NCBI RefSeq assembly: GCF_020166105.1
Contig: NZ_JAIUJY010000001.1
Coordinates: forward strand, 310,001 to 374,000
Reading direction: 5' to 3'
Source of the DNA: Blastococcus sp. LR1
Lineage (GTDB): Bacteria > Actinomycetota > Actinomycetes > Mycobacteriales > Geodermatophilaceae
DNA: 64,000 nt
Shown here: positions 23,443 through 61,807 of the stretch, in pieces
Numbering within the stretch: position 1 is the stretch's first letter
How the letters are laid out: each line of letters opens with the position of its first letter
Translations under genes and position numbers: made by a program
The notes under the pieces: generated by a model
Database searches by the model: none
The model's input: only the letters and a program-made list of their open reading frames with translations
Told to the model about the DNA's origin: nothing

Positions 23443-23459
23443 GAGCGGCGGCTCTCCAT
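23421..23459 (-). CDS. Possible 12-codon upstream ORF overlapping the ripC start
   Basis: ATG 23459 has a better Shine-Dalgarno (AGAGGAAG) than ripC itself and encodes MESRRSWRPLTH before TGA. It overlaps the ripC start in another frame, so its translation could couple to or compete with ripC. It may be chance. Confidence 0.3.
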   Translation of the reverse strand: MESRRSWRPLTH

Positions 23460-23471
23460 TCTTCCTCTACG

Positions 23472-23625
23472 ACCGCCTACCGAGTTAGCTGACGGGTTCG
23501 GGCTGGGAAGACTGGCCCTATCCCCCGGGCCGGCGAGCCGGCCGTGGAGGAATTCACCCCAAGACTGCGGTGGGTCCCCGGTTCACTCGGGCGCCAGTGC
23601 TGCGCGCCGTGCGTGATTAGGCGGT
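23472..23625 (-). ncRNA. ydaO/yuaA-type cyclic di-AMP riboswitch
   Basis: The minus strand shows the class hallmarks in order: GGGGACCCA, GGGGTGAAT, and CCGAACCCGTCAGCTAAC, closed by a perfect 8-bp P1 stem (ACCGCCTA at 23618-23625 with TAGGCGGT at 23472-23479). In actinobacteria this class commonly controls genes for wall hydrolases and resuscitation factors, and it turns expression off when c-di-AMP is high. It lies in the leader of the ripC-like gene. No terminator follows P1 visibly, so control may act at translation or by Rho; the SD lies about 15-20 nt past P1. Confidence 0.93.
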
Positions 23626-23679
23626 GCCCGGTCGAGGTCATCCCTCTGCGGATGACGACCGCTCGACTGAACGGCGACG

Positions 23680-56326: not shown

Positions 56327-59233
56327 TCAGCCCAGGACGAAGTTGACCAGCCTGCCGGGGACGGCGATGACGCGCCGGACCGTGGCGCCGTCGAGCCAGG
56401 CTGCGATCTTCTCGTCGGCGCGGGCAGCCGCCTCCAGCGTCGCGGCGTCGGCGTCGGACGGCACCGTGACCTGCGAGCGCACCTTGCCGTTCACCTGGAC
56501 GGCGACCTGCACGGTGTCCTCGACCAGCCAGCGCTCGTCGGCGACCGGGAACGGCGCCCACGCCGAGGAGCCCTCGTGGCCCAGCCGGGACCACAGCTCC
56601 TCGGCCAGGTGCGGCGCCAGCGGGCCGACCAGCAGCACCAGCGGCTCGATCACCGAACGCGGCACCGGCGAGGACGCGCCGTAGCTCGCCGTCAGGTGGT
56701 TGGTCAGCTCGGTGATCCGGGCGATGGCGATGTTGAAGCGCAGCGTCGTGTACCCGTCGCGGACCCCGTCGATCGCCTGGTGCAGCGCGCGCAGCGTCTC
56801 CTCGGCGGGCTCCGCGTCGGAGGCCCGCACGGCGCCGGTCTCCTCGTCGACGACGACCCGCCAGATGCGCTGCAGCAGCCGCTGCGAACCGACGACGGCC
56901 TTGGTCTCCCACGGCCGGGACTGCTCCAGCGGGCCGGTCGACATCTCGTACACGCGGAAGGTGTCGGCACCGTAGGCGCCGATCATCTCGTCCGGCGTGA
57001 CCATGTTCTTCAGGCTCTTGCCGATCTTCCCGTACTCGCGGTTGACCGGCTTGCCCTCGTGGAAGAACGAGCCGTCCTTCTCCACGACCTCGGACGCCTG
57101 CACGTAGAAGCCGCGCTCGTCGGTGTAGGCGTAGGCGGAGATGTAGCCCTGGTTCACCAGCCGGCGGAACGGCTCCTCGCTGGAGACGTGGCCCAGGTCG
57201 TGCAGGACCTTGTGCCAGAAGCGGGCGTACAGCAGGTGGAGCACGGCGTGCTCGACGCCGCCGACGTACAGGTCGACGCCGCCGGTATCGCCCTCGCCGC
57301 GGGGGCCCATCCAGTAGCGCTCCAGCTCCGGGTCGACCATCCGCTCGTCGTCGCCCGGGTCCAGGTAGCGCAGGTAGTACCAGCAGGAGCCCGCCCAGTT
57401 GGGCATCGTGTTGGTCTCGCGGCGGTACTTCCGCATGCCGTCGCCGAGGTCGAGCTCGACCGTCGTCCACTCGGATGCCCGCGACAGCGGCGGCTCGGGT
57501 GCGGAGTCGGCGTCGTCGTCGGAGAAGGTCTTCGGCGAGTAGTCGTCCACCTCGGGCAGCAGCACCGGCAGCATCGACTGCGGCACGGCGACGGGCAGGC
57601 CGGCATCGTCCCCGTCGACGGCGTAGACGATCGGGAACGGCTCGCCCCAGTAGCGCTGCCGGCTGAACAGCCAGTCGCGCAGCTTGTAGGTGGTGGTCGC
57701 CTCGCCGGCGCCCCGGCCGACCAGCCACTCGGTGACCTTCGCGATCGCGGCGGCCTTGTCCAGGCCGTTCAGCGAGATCTCGTCGTTGGCGGAGTTGATC
57801 ATCGCGCCCGGGCCGGTGTACGCGCCGCCGGCATCGTCGAAGCCCTCCGGCCGCTCGACGGTCGGCACGATCTCCAGCCCGAAGGCCTGGGCGAAGTCCC
57901 AGTCGCGCTGGTCCTCGCCGGGCACGGCCATGATCGCGCCGGTGCCGTAGCCGGTCAGCACGTAGTCGGCGATGAACACCGGCAGCTCCCGGCCGTTCAC
58001 CGGGTTGACGGCGGAGACGCCCAGCCAGACACCGGTCTTCTCGCGCCCGGCGTCCTGGCGGTCCAGCTCCGAGCGGCGCGAGGCCTGCCGCTGGTACTCC
58101 TGCACGGCCTCGGCGGGCGTCGCGGCGCCGCTGGTCCAGCGCGGGTCGGCCCCGTCGGGCCAGACGGCGGCGGTCAGCGGGGCGACCAGCGGGTGCTCCG
58201 GCGCCAGCACCAGATAGGTGGCCCCGAACAGGGTGTCGGGGCGGGTGGTGAAGACCTCGACCGACTCGCCCTCGCAGGCGAACCGGATCTTGGCGCCGGT
58301 CGACTTCCCGATCCAGTTCCGCTGCATCTGCTTCAGCGAGTCCGACCAGTCCAGCCGGTCCAGATCGGCCAGCAGCCGGTCGGCGTAGGCGGTGATCCGC
58401 ATCATCCACTGCTTCAGCGGGCGCCGGAACACCGGGAAGTTGCCCCGCTCGGAGCGCCCGTCGGCGGTGACCTCCTCGTTGGACAGCACCGTGCCCAGCC
58501 CGGGGCACCAGTTGACCGGCGCCTCGTTCAGGTAGGCCAGCCGGTGGGCGTCGACGACGCGGCGCCGCTCCACCTCGTCCAGCTCCGCCCAGGGGCGGCC
58601 GGAGGGGTTGGTGCCGACGGCGGGCTCCCGCGTTCCGGCGTCCAGCTCGGCGACCAGCTTCTCGATGGGTCGCGCCTTCCCGGCCGTCTCGTCGAACCAG
58701 GCGCCGAACAGCTGCAGGAAGATCCACTGGGTCCACTTGTAGTAGCCCGGGTCGATGGTGGCGAAGGTCCGCCGCCGGTCGTGGTCGACCCCCAGCCGGC
58801 GCAGCTGCGCGGAGATCGCGGCGATGTTGGCCTCGGTGGTCACCCGCGGGTGCTGGCCGGTCTGCACGGCGTACTGCTCGGCGGGCAGGCCGAAGGCGTC
58901 GTACCCCATCGGGTGCAGGACGTTGTCGCCGTCCATGCGGCGGAACCGGCTCGTGACGTCGGTGCCCAGGTAGCCCAGCGGGTGGCCGACGTGCAGCCCC
59001 GCACCCGAGGGGTACGGGAACATGTCCATCGCGAAGTACTTGGGCCGGTCGGCCACCTTCTCGAAGCCCGCGCCCAGCCGCCCGGCGGGGTTGGGCGTGT
59101 GGAAGGTGCCCTCGGCCTCCCAGCGGTCCTGCCAGTCGAGCTCGATCTGCTGCGCCAGCGCCGGCGTGTACCGGTGGGCGGGAACGCCGTCGCCGGAGGA
59201 CGCGGTGGCAGGCGTTCGGTCGGTCTGGCTCAT
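56327..59233 (-). CDS. leuS: Leucyl-tRNA synthetase
   Basis: Charges tRNA-Leu. The 968 residues show the class I motif [12 protein letters not shown] (HIGH), the large editing (CP1) insertion with GIMxxV-like [24 protein letters not shown] near the tRNA contact, KMSKS equivalent KIGKSLKN and a C-terminal anticodon-binding region. ATG 59233 after CGGGAGCCC. Expression is probably attenuated through the leader peptide and terminator at 59272-59358. Confidence 0.97.
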
Positions 59234-59271
59234 CGTGGGGCTCCCGTGGGGGTCGAACCGGCGGCGGGCAG

Positions 59272-59297
59272 AAAAAAACCCCTCACGCAGGAGGGGT
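59272..59297 (-). terminator. leuS attenuator: intrinsic terminator in the leader
   Basis: A 7-bp GC-rich stem (59278-59284 with 59291-59297) with a 6-nt loop is followed on the minus strand by seven T residues (59272-59278), which no other hairpin in the window has. It lies 38 bp before leuS and 26 bp after the leader peptide stop. Confidence 0.85.
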
Positions 59298-59298
59298 C

Positions 59299-59332
59299 GC
59301 CGTGCTGTCCGATCGGATCAGGTCAGCACGGC
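59299..59332 (-). promoter_or_regulatory. leuS leader hairpin overlapping the leader peptide end
   Basis: Arms GCCGTGCTG (59324-59332 as read on the minus strand) and CAGCACGGC (59299-59307) pair over 9 bp. The 5' arm includes the last codons and stop of the leader peptide, so translation would interfere with its formation. Its exact place in the switch is not resolved. Confidence 0.55.
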
Positions 59333-59358
59333 CGGAGAAGGAGCAGTCCACCGGACAC
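59323..59358 (-). CDS. leuS leader peptide, four consecutive leucine codons
   Basis: GTG 59358 opens an 11-residue peptide, VSGGLLLLRPC, ending with TGA. The four Leu codons CTG CTC CTT CTC are consecutive and include the rare CTT. A TACGCT box lies 6 nt upstream, so the transcript would start at the GTG. This is the expected layout of ribosome-mediated attenuation: stalling at Leu codons senses charged tRNA-Leu and controls the terminator ahead of leuS. Too short for standard gene finders. Confidence 0.8.
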   Translation of the reverse strand: MSGGLLLLRPC

Positions 59359-59364
59359 GGGGTC

Positions 59365-59370
59365 AGCGTA
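59365..59370 (-). promoter_or_regulatory. -10 box TACGCT of the leuS leader, leaderless start
   Basis: It lies 6 nt before GTG 59358. No clear -35. Confidence 0.55.
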
Positions 59371-59482: not shown

Positions 59483-61807
59483 GTGAGCACTCAGCAGCCC
59501 GGTGACGGCAGGTCGGCCAACCTGTCGCGGTGGTGCGCCGTGCTGGCTGCCGTCTGCCTCGGCCTCTTCGCCACGGGCGTCGGCACCCGACCGGCCGGCA
59601 CGGGCTGGGCGCTCACCTACGACGTCGTGCTGTACAACGCCGTGTACGTCCTGGCCGCCGTGGGCTGCTTCGCCGCCGCGCGCCGCCCCGGGGACCGCGT
59701 GACCTGGCTGGCCATGGGCCTCGGCCTGGTCCTCTCCACCTCGGGCAACCTCGTCTACAGCCTGGTGATCGCCGAGCTGCCCGACCCGCCGTACCCCTCG
59801 GTCGCCGATGCCCTCTACCTCGCGTCGTTCGTGCCCACCTGCGTGGGCCTCGTCGCCTTCGTCCGGGCACGGGTCCCCCGGTTGCGCCCCGCGATGGTGC
59901 TCGACGGTCTGGTCGGCGCCCTCGGGGCGACGGCCATCGCGGCGACGATCCTGCTCGGCCCGGAGACCCATGCTCTCGGCGAGGACGCCGCGGCGGCCGC
60001 GGTGGGCCTCTTCTACACGGTTGCCGACATGGTGCTGCTCGCCCTGTTCGTGGCCGCCGGTGCCGTCCTGGGCCTGCGTCGCGAGATCACGCTGGTCCTC
60101 CTCATGGCCGGCGTGGCCAGCACCCTCGTCGGAGATCTCGTCTACAGCCGGCTGGCGACCCTCGGCATCTACGTCGAGGGTGGCGCCCTGGACCTGACCT
60201 GGCTCCTCCACGCGACCCTGATCGCGCAGGCCGCCCACCGGTCCAGGCCTGCCCGGGGCGACGGCCACGCCGGGGGGCACTCCGGCGTGCGCACGGGCTG
60301 GCGGCACATCGCGATCCCGCTCGGGCTCAACGTGGCCTGCATCGCCGTGCTCCTGATCCAATCCATGGCGGTCGCACCGATCGCCGCCTGGTGCGCGGCC
60401 GGCTGCATCTCGGCGACCCTCGTCCGCTCGCTCGTGAGCTTCCGGGAGCTGCGCCATTTCCACACCGTCCGGGCCGAGGCGCGGACCGACGAGCTGACCT
60501 CTCTGCCGAACCGCCGGGCGCTGCTCGGTCACGCCGACACCCTGGTCGCGGCCGCGACCACGCGACGCCCCGTCGCCCTCCTCCTCCTCGACCTCGACGG
60601 CTTCAAGGAGGTCAACGACGGCCTCGGCCATGCGGCCGGCGACGAGCTGCTGCGCCAGATCGGACCGCGGCTGGCCACCGAGCTGGGTCCCGCCGACCTG
60701 CTCGCCCGGCTCGGCGGCGACGAGTTCGCCGTCCTCGTGCCGGACGCCGACGTCGACCGGGCGCTCGAGCTCGCCAGACGCCTCCACGACCGACTCCGCC
60801 AGCCGTTCACCGTCGAAGGGCAGCGGCTGCACGTGGGCGCCAGCATCGGCGTCGCCACCGCGCCGGTGCCCGCCGCCGGGGTCCAGGACCTGCTCCGCTG
60901 CGCCGACGTCGCGATGTACGCGGCGAAGGGAGCGCAGGAGGGGGTTCGTGTCTACCTGCCCGATCCCCGGGGTGGCAGCGGCGACCGGCTGCGGACGATG
61001 GAAGACCTGCGGACCGCGCTCGAGACCGATCAGCTGCTCGTGCACCTGCAGCCCCAGGTGCGGCTGGCCGACGGCGCTGTCGCCGGAGTGGAGGCACTGG
61101 TGCGGTGGCAGCACCCCTCCCGCGGTCTGCTCACGCCGGCCGAGATCCTGCCGGCCGCCGAGCAGGCCGGGCTGATGCAACCGCTGACCGACGTCGTCCT
61201 CCGGCTGGCGCTCGAGGCAACCACCCGGTGGTGGCCGGATCGGGCGGTGCCGGTGTCGGTGAACCTGTCGGCGGCAAGCGTCACAGACCTGGAGCTGCCG
61301 GCCACGGTGATCCGTCGACTGCGGGACCACGGGCTCCCCCCGGAGGCGCTCACCCTGGAACTGGTCGAGGACACCCTCATGGCCGACCCCGACCGCGGCC
61401 GCGCGGTGCTGGGTGAGCTGCGCCGGCTCGGCGTCCGCACGTCGATCGACGACTACGGCACCGGGTACAGCTCCCTGGCCTACCTGCGCCACCTGCCGGC
61501 CGACGAGCTGAAGCTCGACCGCAGCCTCACTGCCGACGTCGGCCGCGACGACCGGGCCACGGCGATCGTCGGGCACACCGTGGCCCTCGTCCACGCCCTG
61601 GGTCTGACCCTGGTCGCCGAGGGGGTGGAGGACGAGGAGACCGCGGTCGTGCTCGCCGCGCTCGGGTGCGACGTCGCCCAGGGCTGGGCGGTCGCCCGGC
61701 CGATGCCCGTCGAGCAGTTCCTCGGGTGGCTGGCCGACCGCTCGTCCTCGTCCGGCACGGCGGTGATTCCTGCGCCGCGGGTGCCGGGGCAGCGCGTCGC
61801 TCCGTGA
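59483..61807 (+). CDS. Membrane GGDEF-EAL protein, probable c-di-GMP cyclase/phosphodiesterase
   Basis: A 774-residue bifunctional protein. About seven to eight N-terminal helices (about 17-330) form a sensor I cannot assign to a named domain. The GGDEF domain (about 345-500) keeps the intact GGDEF loop at 411-415; the RxxD inhibition site five residues upstream is GPAD, so it lacks I-site control. The EAL domain (about 510-760) keeps E537-A-L, NLS, LELVED, IDDYGTGYSSL and VAEGVEDEE, all metal and catalytic residues. GTG 59483 lies after GGGG; upstream frame is open by chance. Tandem with a close copy at 61945. Confidence 0.92.
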   Translation: MSTQQPGDGRSANLSRWCAVLAAVCLGLFATGVGTRPAGTGWALTYDVVLYNAVYVLAAVGCFAAARRPGDRVTWLAMGLGLVLSTSGNLVYSLVIAELPDPPYPSVADALYLASFVPTCVGLVAFVRARVPRLRPAMVLDGLVGALGATAIAATILLGPETHALGEDAAAAAVGLFYTVADMVLLALFVAAGAVLGLRREITLVLLMAGVASTLVGDLVYSRLATLGIYVEGGALDLTWLLHATLIAQAAHRSRPARGDGHAGGHSGVRTGWRHIAIPLGLNVACIAVLLIQSMAVAPIAAWCAAGCISATLVRSLVSFRELRHFHTVRAEARTDELTSLPNRRALLGHADTLVAAATTRRPVALLLLDLDGFKEVNDGLGHAAGDELLRQIGPRLATELGPADLLARLGGDEFAVLVPDADVDRALELARRLHDRLRQPFTVEGQRLHVGASIGVATAPVPAAGVQDLLRCADVAMYAAKGAQEGVRVYLPDPRGGSGDRLRTMEDLRTALETDQLLVHLQPQVRLADGAVAGVEALVRWQHPSRGLLTPAEILPAAEQAGLMQPLTDVVLRLALEATTRWWPDRAVPVSVNLSAASVTDLELPATVIRRLRDHGLPPEALTLELVEDTLMADPDRGRAVLGELRRLGVRTSIDDYGTGYSSLAYLRHLPADELKLDRSLTADVGRDDRATAIVGHTVALVHALGLTLVAEGVEDEETAVVLAALGCDVAQGWAVARPMPVEQFLGWLADRSSSSGTAVIPAPRVPGQRVAP

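What the first reader, a model, noticed from the sequence alone, without database searches (positions are those of the whole stretch)
59272..59370. Leucine-responsive attenuator with a leaderless leader peptide upstream of leuS
On the minus strand an 11-residue ORF starts 6 nt after a TACGCT box and holds four consecutive Leu codons (CTG CTC CTT CTC). A 9-bp hairpin overlaps its end, and then comes the only U-tract intrinsic terminator of the window, 38 bp before leuS. These parts together are what ribosome-mediated attenuation requires. I could not identify a clean mutually exclusive antiterminator, so the switch mechanism may differ from the enteric model.
Basis: partly seen in the sequence, partly recalled or inferred. 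Interest (0 to 1): 0.8.

Follow-up and report, generated by a model that had tools for sequence, protein, structure and literature searches.

The report
Leucine-sensing switch before leuS gene
A short stretch of RNA in front of the gene for leucyl-tRNA synthetase very probably senses leucine shortage through a tiny leucine-rich peptide; such switches were already predicted in Streptomyces, but here it is shown to be widely conserved and to share its building plan with switches in front of isoleucine and valine genes.

Summary
On the minus strand lie TACGCT (59370-59365), 6 nt, the leader ORF MSGGLLLLRPC (59358-59323), a 9-bp hairpin (59332-59299) whose 5' arm holds the end of the ORF, a terminator (59298-59272) with the window's only T-run of 5 or more, and leuS (ATG 59233). 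The element is in 90 of 90 family leuS loci read: TANNNT is 6 or 7 nt from the start codon, 82 of 90 have three or more consecutive Leu codons, and CTT is 29% of leader Leu codons against 0.3% in leuS. Both stems covary. It is orthologous to the Streptomyces leuS attenuator predicted in 2005 and mapped as leaderless by RNA-seq in 2021: a new member of a known kind. New here: in the window no exclusive antiterminator is seen; a ribosome at the stop codon excludes hairpin 1, which abuts the terminator, while the terminator stem is predicted to survive in nearly all leaders folded. The same plan, with other codons, precedes cimA (Ile) and ilvB (Val/Leu) in the same genome; I found no report of the cimA leader. 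My best, untested model: a preformed hairpin 1 blocks the abutting terminator when a ribosome stalls at Leu codons.

The parts
59365..59370 (-). -10-like box TACGCT, 6 nt before the leader start codon (implies a leaderless transcript)
   Evidence: TANNNT at 6 or 7 nt in 90 of 90 family loci read
59323..59358 (-). leader ORF MSGGLLLLRPC, GTG start, TGA stop
   Evidence: conserved in 90 of 90 family leuS loci read and, as an orthologue, in named Streptomyces and Pseudonocardiales loci
59335..59346 (-). four consecutive Leu codons CTG CTC CTT CTC
   Evidence: CTT is 81 of 279 Leu codons in family leaders against 7 of 2045 in leuS coding sequence
59299..59332 (-). hairpin 1 (9-bp stem GCCGTGCTG/CAGCACGGC); its 5' arm contains the last codon and the first two bases of the stop codon
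   Evidence: folds; covariation U-A to C-G at two pairs
59272..59298 (-). intrinsic terminator: 8-bp stem GACCCCTC/GAGGGGTT with seven-T tract, starting directly after hairpin 1
   Evidence: covariation in the stem
59241..59245 (-). probable Shine-Dalgarno sequence GGGAG of leuS
   Evidence: sequence only
56327..59233 (-). leuS, leucyl-tRNA synthetase, 968 aa
   Evidence: TIGR00396, 2.8e-265

Best explanation
This is a ribosome-mediated transcription attenuator that adjusts leuS to the supply of charged tRNA-Leu. Transcription starts at the GTG, so a ribosome loads on the bare 5' end and translates the 11-codon leader (inferred here from the box spacing; reported from RNA-seq only for the Streptomyces orthologue). 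With enough Leu-tRNA the ribosome reaches the stop codon, which lies inside the 5' arm of hairpin 1, and covers that arm; hairpin 1 cannot form and the terminator works. When Leu-tRNA is short, the ribosome stalls at the Leu codons (rare CTT among them), the arm is free and hairpin 1 folds. Because hairpin 1 directly abuts the base of the terminator stem, a preformed hairpin 1 keeps the terminator from closing in the RNA exit channel, and RNA polymerase reads on into leuS. That a ribosome at the stop codon excludes hairpin 1 while a stall at the first Leu codon permits it follows from the geometry (computed); that hairpin 1 acts as the antiterminator by abutment is inference.
For: Conservation in 90 of 90 family loci read, with TANNNT 6-7 nt from the start in all 90, a Leu run of 3 or more in 82, and CTT at 29% of leader Leu codons against 0.3% in leuS. 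Covariation in 35 leaders: 98.7% of cells paired, 26 cells with changes on both sides, 0 of 500 shuffles as high on those two measures. Orthologues across the class: model R1 hits 194 of 394 genomes at E <= 0.01; of 69 hit loci read, 64 have LeuS downstream (42 by tblastn identity of 50% or more, 22 of lower identity all confirmed as TIGR00396), 3 have CimA (L227 by TIGR00977; L225 and L228 by eye) and 2 are unresolved. Ribosome masks on 192 leaders of four sets: hairpin 1 formed with a stall at the first regulatory codon in 192 and with a ribosome at the stop codon in 0 (partly by construction, since hairpin 1 was defined on the RNA beyond a stalled ribosome). Gap between hairpin 1 and terminator 0-3 nt in 192 of 192. 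The same plan with Ile codons at cimA and Val/Leu codons at ilvB. Literature (passages): leuS attenuators predicted in S. avermitilis and S. coelicolor (PMC1262725); leaderless LeuL2 in S. lividans (PMC8079986); the same ribosome-position logic proposed for M. tuberculosis ilvB1, where changed regulatory codons left low, dose-independent reporter expression (PMC13236596).
Against: The terminator stem keeps p > 0.9 in nearly every ribosome state (free 187, stalled 191, at stop 183 of 192), so equilibrium folding gives no switch. Abutment is common by chance in such GC-rich RNA: in shuffles that fold into two hairpins the gap is 3 nt or less in 1023 of 1416 (leuS family), 770 of 1020 (leuS class), 353 of 508 (cimA) and 235 of 330 (ilvB); with a stem of 9 or more pairs required as well it is 589 of 1580, 472 of 1140, 159 of 520 and 132 of 340 shuffles, against 179 of 179 distinct leaders. 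Zero shared bases is not general: it holds in 67 of 89 family and 19 of 27 cimA leaders but only 22 of 59 class leuS and 4 of 17 ilvB leaders. The related S. coelicolor ilvB leader kept its regulation when its candidate regulatory codons were changed, and leuA changes did not fit classical attenuation (as told in PMC1262725). A regular-expression scan found no such leader in 7 of 43 named actinobacterial LeuS loci. No expression data were available.
Confidence: 0.78

Rival explanations
1. Classical attenuation with a small overlap: hairpin 1 (or an outer stem around it) and the terminator compete for bases at their boundary, as proposed for the C. glutamicum ilvBNC attenuator, where both hairpins share a GCC trinucleotide.
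For: In nascent-transcript folds hairpin 1 and the terminator share 1-3 nt in 24 of 59 class leuS leaders and 19 of 89 family leaders, and 4 or more nt in 13 class, 3 family, 7 of 27 cimA and 11 of 17 ilvB leaders; in a repeat without the following bases the deep overlaps keep the hairpin 1 core in nearly all (30 of 31). The C. glutamicum model was supported by point mutants (PMC11857589, passages).
Against: In the window, and in 67 of 89 family leaders, the two hairpins share no base, so for this leader a shared-base rule has nothing to act on; once the terminator 3' arm is included the terminator wins in nearly all.
Confidence: 0.3
2. Hairpin 1 is a pause or anti-antiterminator hairpin (like trp 1:2) and the real antiterminator is an undetected pairing, for example of the Leu-codon region with the terminator 3' arm or with the leuS Shine-Dalgarno region, as in the LEU element of leuA.
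For: The centroid fold of the window leader pairs GCUCC of the Leu codons with GGAGC at the leuS Shine-Dalgarno site.
Against: Among the 40 listed complementary column pairs with most covariation I see no contiguous helix other than hairpin 1 and the terminator; the Shine-Dalgarno sequence and its distance vary between genera; constrained folds show no alternative partner that opens the terminator in most leaders.
Confidence: 0.12
3. The short ORF is not a sensor; the terminator is a constitutive damper of leuS, or the response is to something other than leucine.
For: No expression data here; regulatory-codon changes in S. coelicolor ilvB had no effect (as told in PMC1262725).
Against: Conservation of the Leu run and of a codon almost absent from leuS, and the codon change to Ile or Val/Leu in front of cimA and ilvB.
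Confidence: 0.06

Closest known systems
leuS attenuator of Streptomyces (leader peptide LeuL2 of S. lividans TK24, MRAVRLLLSEPR)
   Same: Same gene, leaderless leader, Leu run with CTT codons, stop codon in the 5' arm of a GCCGYGC hairpin, U-tract terminator directly behind it; alignable
   Different: Peptide and loop differ (extra upper stem in Streptomyces); GTG start and 11 codons in most family leaders read (84 of 90 have 11 codons)
ilvBNC attenuator of Corynebacterium glutamicum (three-hairpin model; ilvB-II motif)
   Same: BCAA-rich leader peptide, hairpin next to a U-tract terminator, ribosome stall permits the antiterminator
   Different: There the antiterminator shares three bases with the terminator (PMC11857589, passages), or pairs the P1 loop with the lower terminator stem (PMC10272879, passages); in the window no shared base is found
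ilvB1 attenuator of Mycobacterium tuberculosis
   Same: Ribosome at the stop codon masks the antiterminator, stall at BCAA codons frees it (PMC13236596, passages)
   Different: Leader of 166 nt and a described mutually exclusive structure; gene ilvB1
Enteric trp/leu attenuators (recalled)
   Different: No overlapping antiterminator found in the window; leaderless start; controls a tRNA synthetase
LEU element of actinobacterial leuA
   Same: Short ORF with a run of Leu codons
   Different: Its described pseudoknot and Leu-codon to Shine-Dalgarno stem (PMC1262725, passages) have no covariation support here; here there is a U-tract terminator

Membership tests
Actinobacterial leuS attenuator (Streptomyces leuL2 type) | Lies directly upstream of leuS | tested here: met
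Actinobacterial leuS attenuator (Streptomyces leuL2 type) | Short leader ORF with a run of Leu codons | tested here: met
Actinobacterial leuS attenuator (Streptomyces leuL2 type) | Leaderless transcript | tested here: inconclusive
   TANNNT 6-7 nt before the start codon in 90 of 90 fits; no 5'-end mapping
Actinobacterial leuS attenuator (Streptomyces leuL2 type) | Hairpin followed by a U-tract terminator, alignable with Streptomyces | tested here: met
Classical (enteric) ribosome-mediated attenuator | Leader peptide with cognate codons, then an intrinsic terminator before the gene | tested here: met
Classical (enteric) ribosome-mediated attenuator | Antiterminator that is mutually exclusive with the terminator by base pairing | tested here: not met
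   Zero shared bases in the window and in 67 of 89 family leaders; terminator stable in all ribosome states of the window leader. Some other leaders do share bases
Classical (enteric) ribosome-mediated attenuator | Read-through rises when the cognate charged tRNA falls | not testable with these tools
   needs expression data
T-box or other Rfam RNA | Match to a family model | tested here: not met
   no Rfam match at gathering score in the region; at E <= 10 three weak matches, best E 0.15
LEU element (leuA) | Leu-codon run pairs with the Shine-Dalgarno sequence of the gene | tested here: inconclusive
   5-bp pairing in the centroid of one fold; no covariation support seen

The most novel reading that the evidence does not exclude
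Actinomycetia carry a shared, exchangeable attenuator module (short sensor ORF, leaderless at least at leuS; hairpin with the stop codon in or at its 5' arm; terminator directly abutting it) used with different codon runs at leuS (Leu), cimA (Ile, apparently unreported), ilvB (Val/Leu) and possibly a leuA-like gene; in its simplest form it switches not by shared base pairs but because a preformed hairpin flush with the terminator base blocks terminator closure inside the polymerase.
Probability: 0.25. Interest if true: 0.7.

Novelty: new member of a known kind. Interest (0 to 1): 0.5.

Why it matters
It turns a prediction once made for two Streptomyces into a widely conserved element with covariation support, points to the codon probably read (CTT, nearly absent from the gene itself), and shows that in this leader the structure the ribosome can switch is a hairpin that touches, but does not overlap, the terminator. 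If abutment is the switch, it is a simple rule for attenuation that folding programs would miss because both hairpins fit together at equilibrium. The cimA leader points to isoleucine control of citramalate synthase by the same module.

Tried and rejected
T-box, LEU element or any Rfam RNA: no match at gathering score in the leuS region or in six loci scanned. A mutually exclusive antiterminator: looked for by free and constrained folding and by covariation over column pairs; none for the window. Pairing of the leader 5' end with the stretch behind the terminator (seen in the minimum-energy fold; single column pairs 29:148 and 36:148) and pairing of the Leu codons with the Shine-Dalgarno sequence: no contiguous covarying helix seen, and the downstream sequence varies between genera. 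Energy alone (z -1.98) was judged too weak to argue from. Abutment as a signal on its own: the shuffle control shows it is common by chance, so it is used as geometry, not as proof. Weak R1 hits in the own genome (8 hits, E 0.03 to 8): one is the reverse strand of the element itself; six printed by eye look like coding sequence; one was not looked at. LeuS hits of under 50% identity behind class leaders raised the suspicion of IleS or ValS; all 22 are LeuS.

Rows dropped or not read: of 111 family genomes with a LeuS match, 90 loci were read and 21 not fetched; four of the 90 needed a corrected start codon. Of the actinobacterial loci, L111 and L132 were left out. In one search, 1 of 90, 3 of 62, 0 of 27 and 1 of 18 leaders gave no two-hairpin fold and are absent from the 192; the 62 are those of 69 class loci in which the script chose a leader ORF, and wrong choices among them cannot be excluded. 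In one search, L096 scored T=0.00 because my pair register did not fit its longer stem; its printed fold shows the terminator. In the cimA set (27 leaders) L281 was lost by a script rule and L266, L282 and L285 were never entered; the cimA alignment A2 (27 rows) leaves out L257 and L293 and adds L294 and L302. L317 and L322 were left out of the ilvB set because other genes follow.

Full report
What is there. The minus strand at 59370-59233 reads TACGCT, six bases, then GTG TCC GGT GGA CTG CTC CTT CTC CGG CCG TGC TGA, a 9-bp hairpin whose 5' arm contains the TGC codon and the first two bases of the stop codon, an 8-bp terminator stem with seven T, and after 38 bp the ATG of leuS. The gene is leucyl-tRNA synthetase. 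In the 64 kb there is one run of five or more T on either strand, and it is this one; there is also only one short ORF of 5-25 codons placed 6-7 nt behind a TANNNT box, and it is this one. Rfam has no family for it at gathering score.

Which organism. 

Conservation in the family. Of 112 genomes searched, 111 have a LeuS match. I read 90 of these loci, the window's own included (30, 60); 21 were not fetched. All 90 have the element. After correcting four start codons, TANNNT lies 6 nt (44) or 7 nt (46) before the start codon; the longest Leu run is 4 in 14, 3 in 68, 2 in 7 and 1 in 1; 64 of 90 peptides end in RPC. Leader Leu codons are CTC 124, CTT 81, CTG 73, TTA 1, whereas leuS coding sequence of those of the loci L002-L031 that the script could read has CTG 1817, CTC 187, TTG 21, CTA 13, CTT 7. 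A codon nearly absent from the gene is thus kept in its leader, which is what a sensor of charged tRNA would want; this step is inference.

Structure. In an alignment of 35 leaders (22 family, 13 named Streptomyces and Pseudonocardiales loci) the two helices are 98.7% paired; pair 34:86 is U-A in 20 and C-G in 15, pair 37:83 is U-A, U-G or C-G, and the terminator pair 93:122 is A-U, U-A, G-U or G-C, with 5 rows unpaired. Cells with changes on both sides number 26 against 9.4 in shuffles (0 of 500 as high); the count of pairs with such changes (4 against 2.8, 39 of 500) and of further pair types (13 against 12.0, 91 of 500) are not striking. A covariation scan over column pairs in the family gives the same helices among its top complementary pairs (56:93, 57:92, 59:90, 100:121, 107:113), next to scattered single pairs.

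Spread. A covariance model (R1) hits 194 of 394 genomes of the class at E <= 0.01, in 82 of 137 genera; stricter filters were in force, which lose weak matches, and the count includes cimA sister elements. Of 69 hit loci that I read, 64 have LeuS downstream, 3 have CimA and 2 are unresolved (L183, L243). The 22 LeuS matches of under 50% identity are LeuS by family model (5, 17). Misses: a simple scan found no leader in 7 of 43 named actinobacterial LeuS loci (Nocardia twice, Aeromicrobium, Mycolicibacterium, an Acidimicrobiaceae MAG, an Aeriscardovia MAG, Buchananella); in the order's family f2, 4 listed genomes have only a weak R1 hit (E 0.004 to 0.009) and the 20 listed genomes without a match from the same order are all f2 (capped list).

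Sister elements. R1 also hit sites without LeuS in family f19. There the leader reads VPSSLIIIARRAG or similar, with Ile codons, and the next gene is citramalate synthase (TIGR00977 for L227; L225 and L228 by eye), an isoleucine-pathway enzyme (recalled). The own genome has it too: MTAPSTIIT, hairpin, terminator, cimA (L294; R2 E 7.9e-21). Whether the cimA leader is leaderless was not tested. In the family an Ile leader was read in 12 of 15 cimA loci (not L250, L252, L262); among 30 class loci it was read in 19, the 10 Streptomyces loci L269-L277 and L280 were cut too short to show it (two read in full, L295 and L296, have it), L289 shows none, and L284, L286, L287 and L290 hold only one Ile codon. 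The cimA stems covary too (27 rows; 33 cells with changes on both sides against 13.0, 0 of 500). Model R2 hits 95 of 148 class genomes at E <= 0.05, in 58 of 82 genera. Its second hit in the own genome lies before ilvB (acetolactate synthase), with leader MPADARTSGVLVLA. Of 20 further R2 hits away from cimA, 15 are followed by a frame that reads like IlvB by eye, 3 printed another frame (L312, L323, L325) and 2 precede other genes (L317, L322).

How it switches. With a ribosome masked at the first regulatory codon, hairpin 1 forms in 192 of 192 leaders (89 leuS family, 59 leuS class, 27 cimA, 17 ilvB); with a ribosome at the stop codon it forms in 0 of 192; the terminator keeps p > 0.9 in 187 (free), 191 (stalled) and 183 (at stop) of 192. 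The first two numbers are partly by construction: hairpin 1 was defined on the RNA beyond a stalled ribosome, and the mask at the stop covers its 5' arm. What they say is that the stop codon is so placed that a terminating ribosome must exclude hairpin 1. Hairpin 1 ends 0-3 nt before the terminator in 192 of 192. Folded along the nascent chain, the two hairpins share no base in the window, in 67 of 89 family, 22 of 59 class leuS, 19 of 27 cimA and 4 of 17 ilvB leaders; the rest share 1-3 nt (19, 24, 1, 2) or 4 and more (3, 13, 7, 11). So the plain abutting form is typical of this family and of cimA, while ilvB and many class leuS leaders could also compete by shared bases, as in C. glutamicum. 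In the family the mean energies are -22.0 kcal/mol for the nascent fold with hairpin 1 and -14.4 for the terminator. Physiology asks for expression when Leu-tRNA is short, hence hairpin 1 should be the 'on' structure. A stem fused to the base of the terminator would have to enter the exit channel for the terminator to close; I propose that this is the block. Against it: abutment is common in shuffled GC-rich sequence, and nothing here measures termination.

What is known. Seliverstov et al. 2005 (PMC1262725; passages) predicted attenuators before leuS in S. avermitilis and S. coelicolor, with leader peptide, antiterminator and terminator; the figure was not available to me, so I cannot say whether its antiterminator is hairpin 1. 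The S. lividans TK24 paper (PMC8079986; passages) lists LeuL2, MRAVRLLLSEPR, as leaderless with hairpin and U stretch, and does not list cimA among its eight leaders. For ilvB: a three-hairpin model with a shared GCC in C. glutamicum (PMC11857589; passages), the ilvB-II motif (PMC10272879; passages), and M. tuberculosis ilvB1 (PMC13236596; passages). The listings show no paper on a cimA leader in actinobacteria; the library is open-access only, so this is not proof. The polycysteine leaderless ORFs of mycobacteria are known to me only from a reference entry and a sentence in PMC13236596.

Verdict. A real, widely conserved leucine-codon leader of the Streptomyces leuS type: new member of a known kind, with a mechanistic twist and an Ile sister at cimA that deserve a test.

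Noticed in passing
L294:170-260 (own genome, G000:C5:273400-273760) and L249-L293: An Ile-codon leader with the same two-hairpin plan precedes cimA (citramalate synthase) in the own genome and widely in the class; no report seen.
   Followed up: yes
L305 (own genome, G000:C5:263393-263487): The same plan precedes ilvB, leader MPADARTSGVLVLA (Val-Leu-Val-Leu), about 10 kb before the cimA element.
   Followed up: partly
L306-L325, ilvB-type leaders: In 11 of 17 folded ilvB leaders the nascent fold reaches 4 or more nt into the terminator 5' arm around a kept hairpin 1: a possible overlapping antiterminator there.
   Followed up: partly
L317 (G163:C93:8660-9210): A leader MKHLLLIESARH of the same plan precedes a gene beginning MERVTIFDTSLRDGEQSPG, which looks like an isopropylmalate-synthase-type enzyme (recalled motif, not searched).
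   Followed up: no
L322 (G213:C6:196230-196780): A leader MFTPRIII with the same plan precedes a small ORF that looks like an ACT-type regulatory subunit (by eye, not searched).
   Followed up: no
L284, L286, L287, L290 upstream of cimA: These cimA leaders hold only one Ile codon, in three of them within ...ITT (Ile-Thr-Thr); why is unexplained.
   Followed up: no
window 23458-23633, minus strand: c-di-AMP riboswitch (RF00379, 73 bits), the only Rfam match of the window at gathering score.
   Followed up: no
window about 59500-61807, plus strand: The leuS leader is close to, and divergent from, a reading frame with GGDEF- and EAL-like sequence (by eye, not searched).
   Followed up: no
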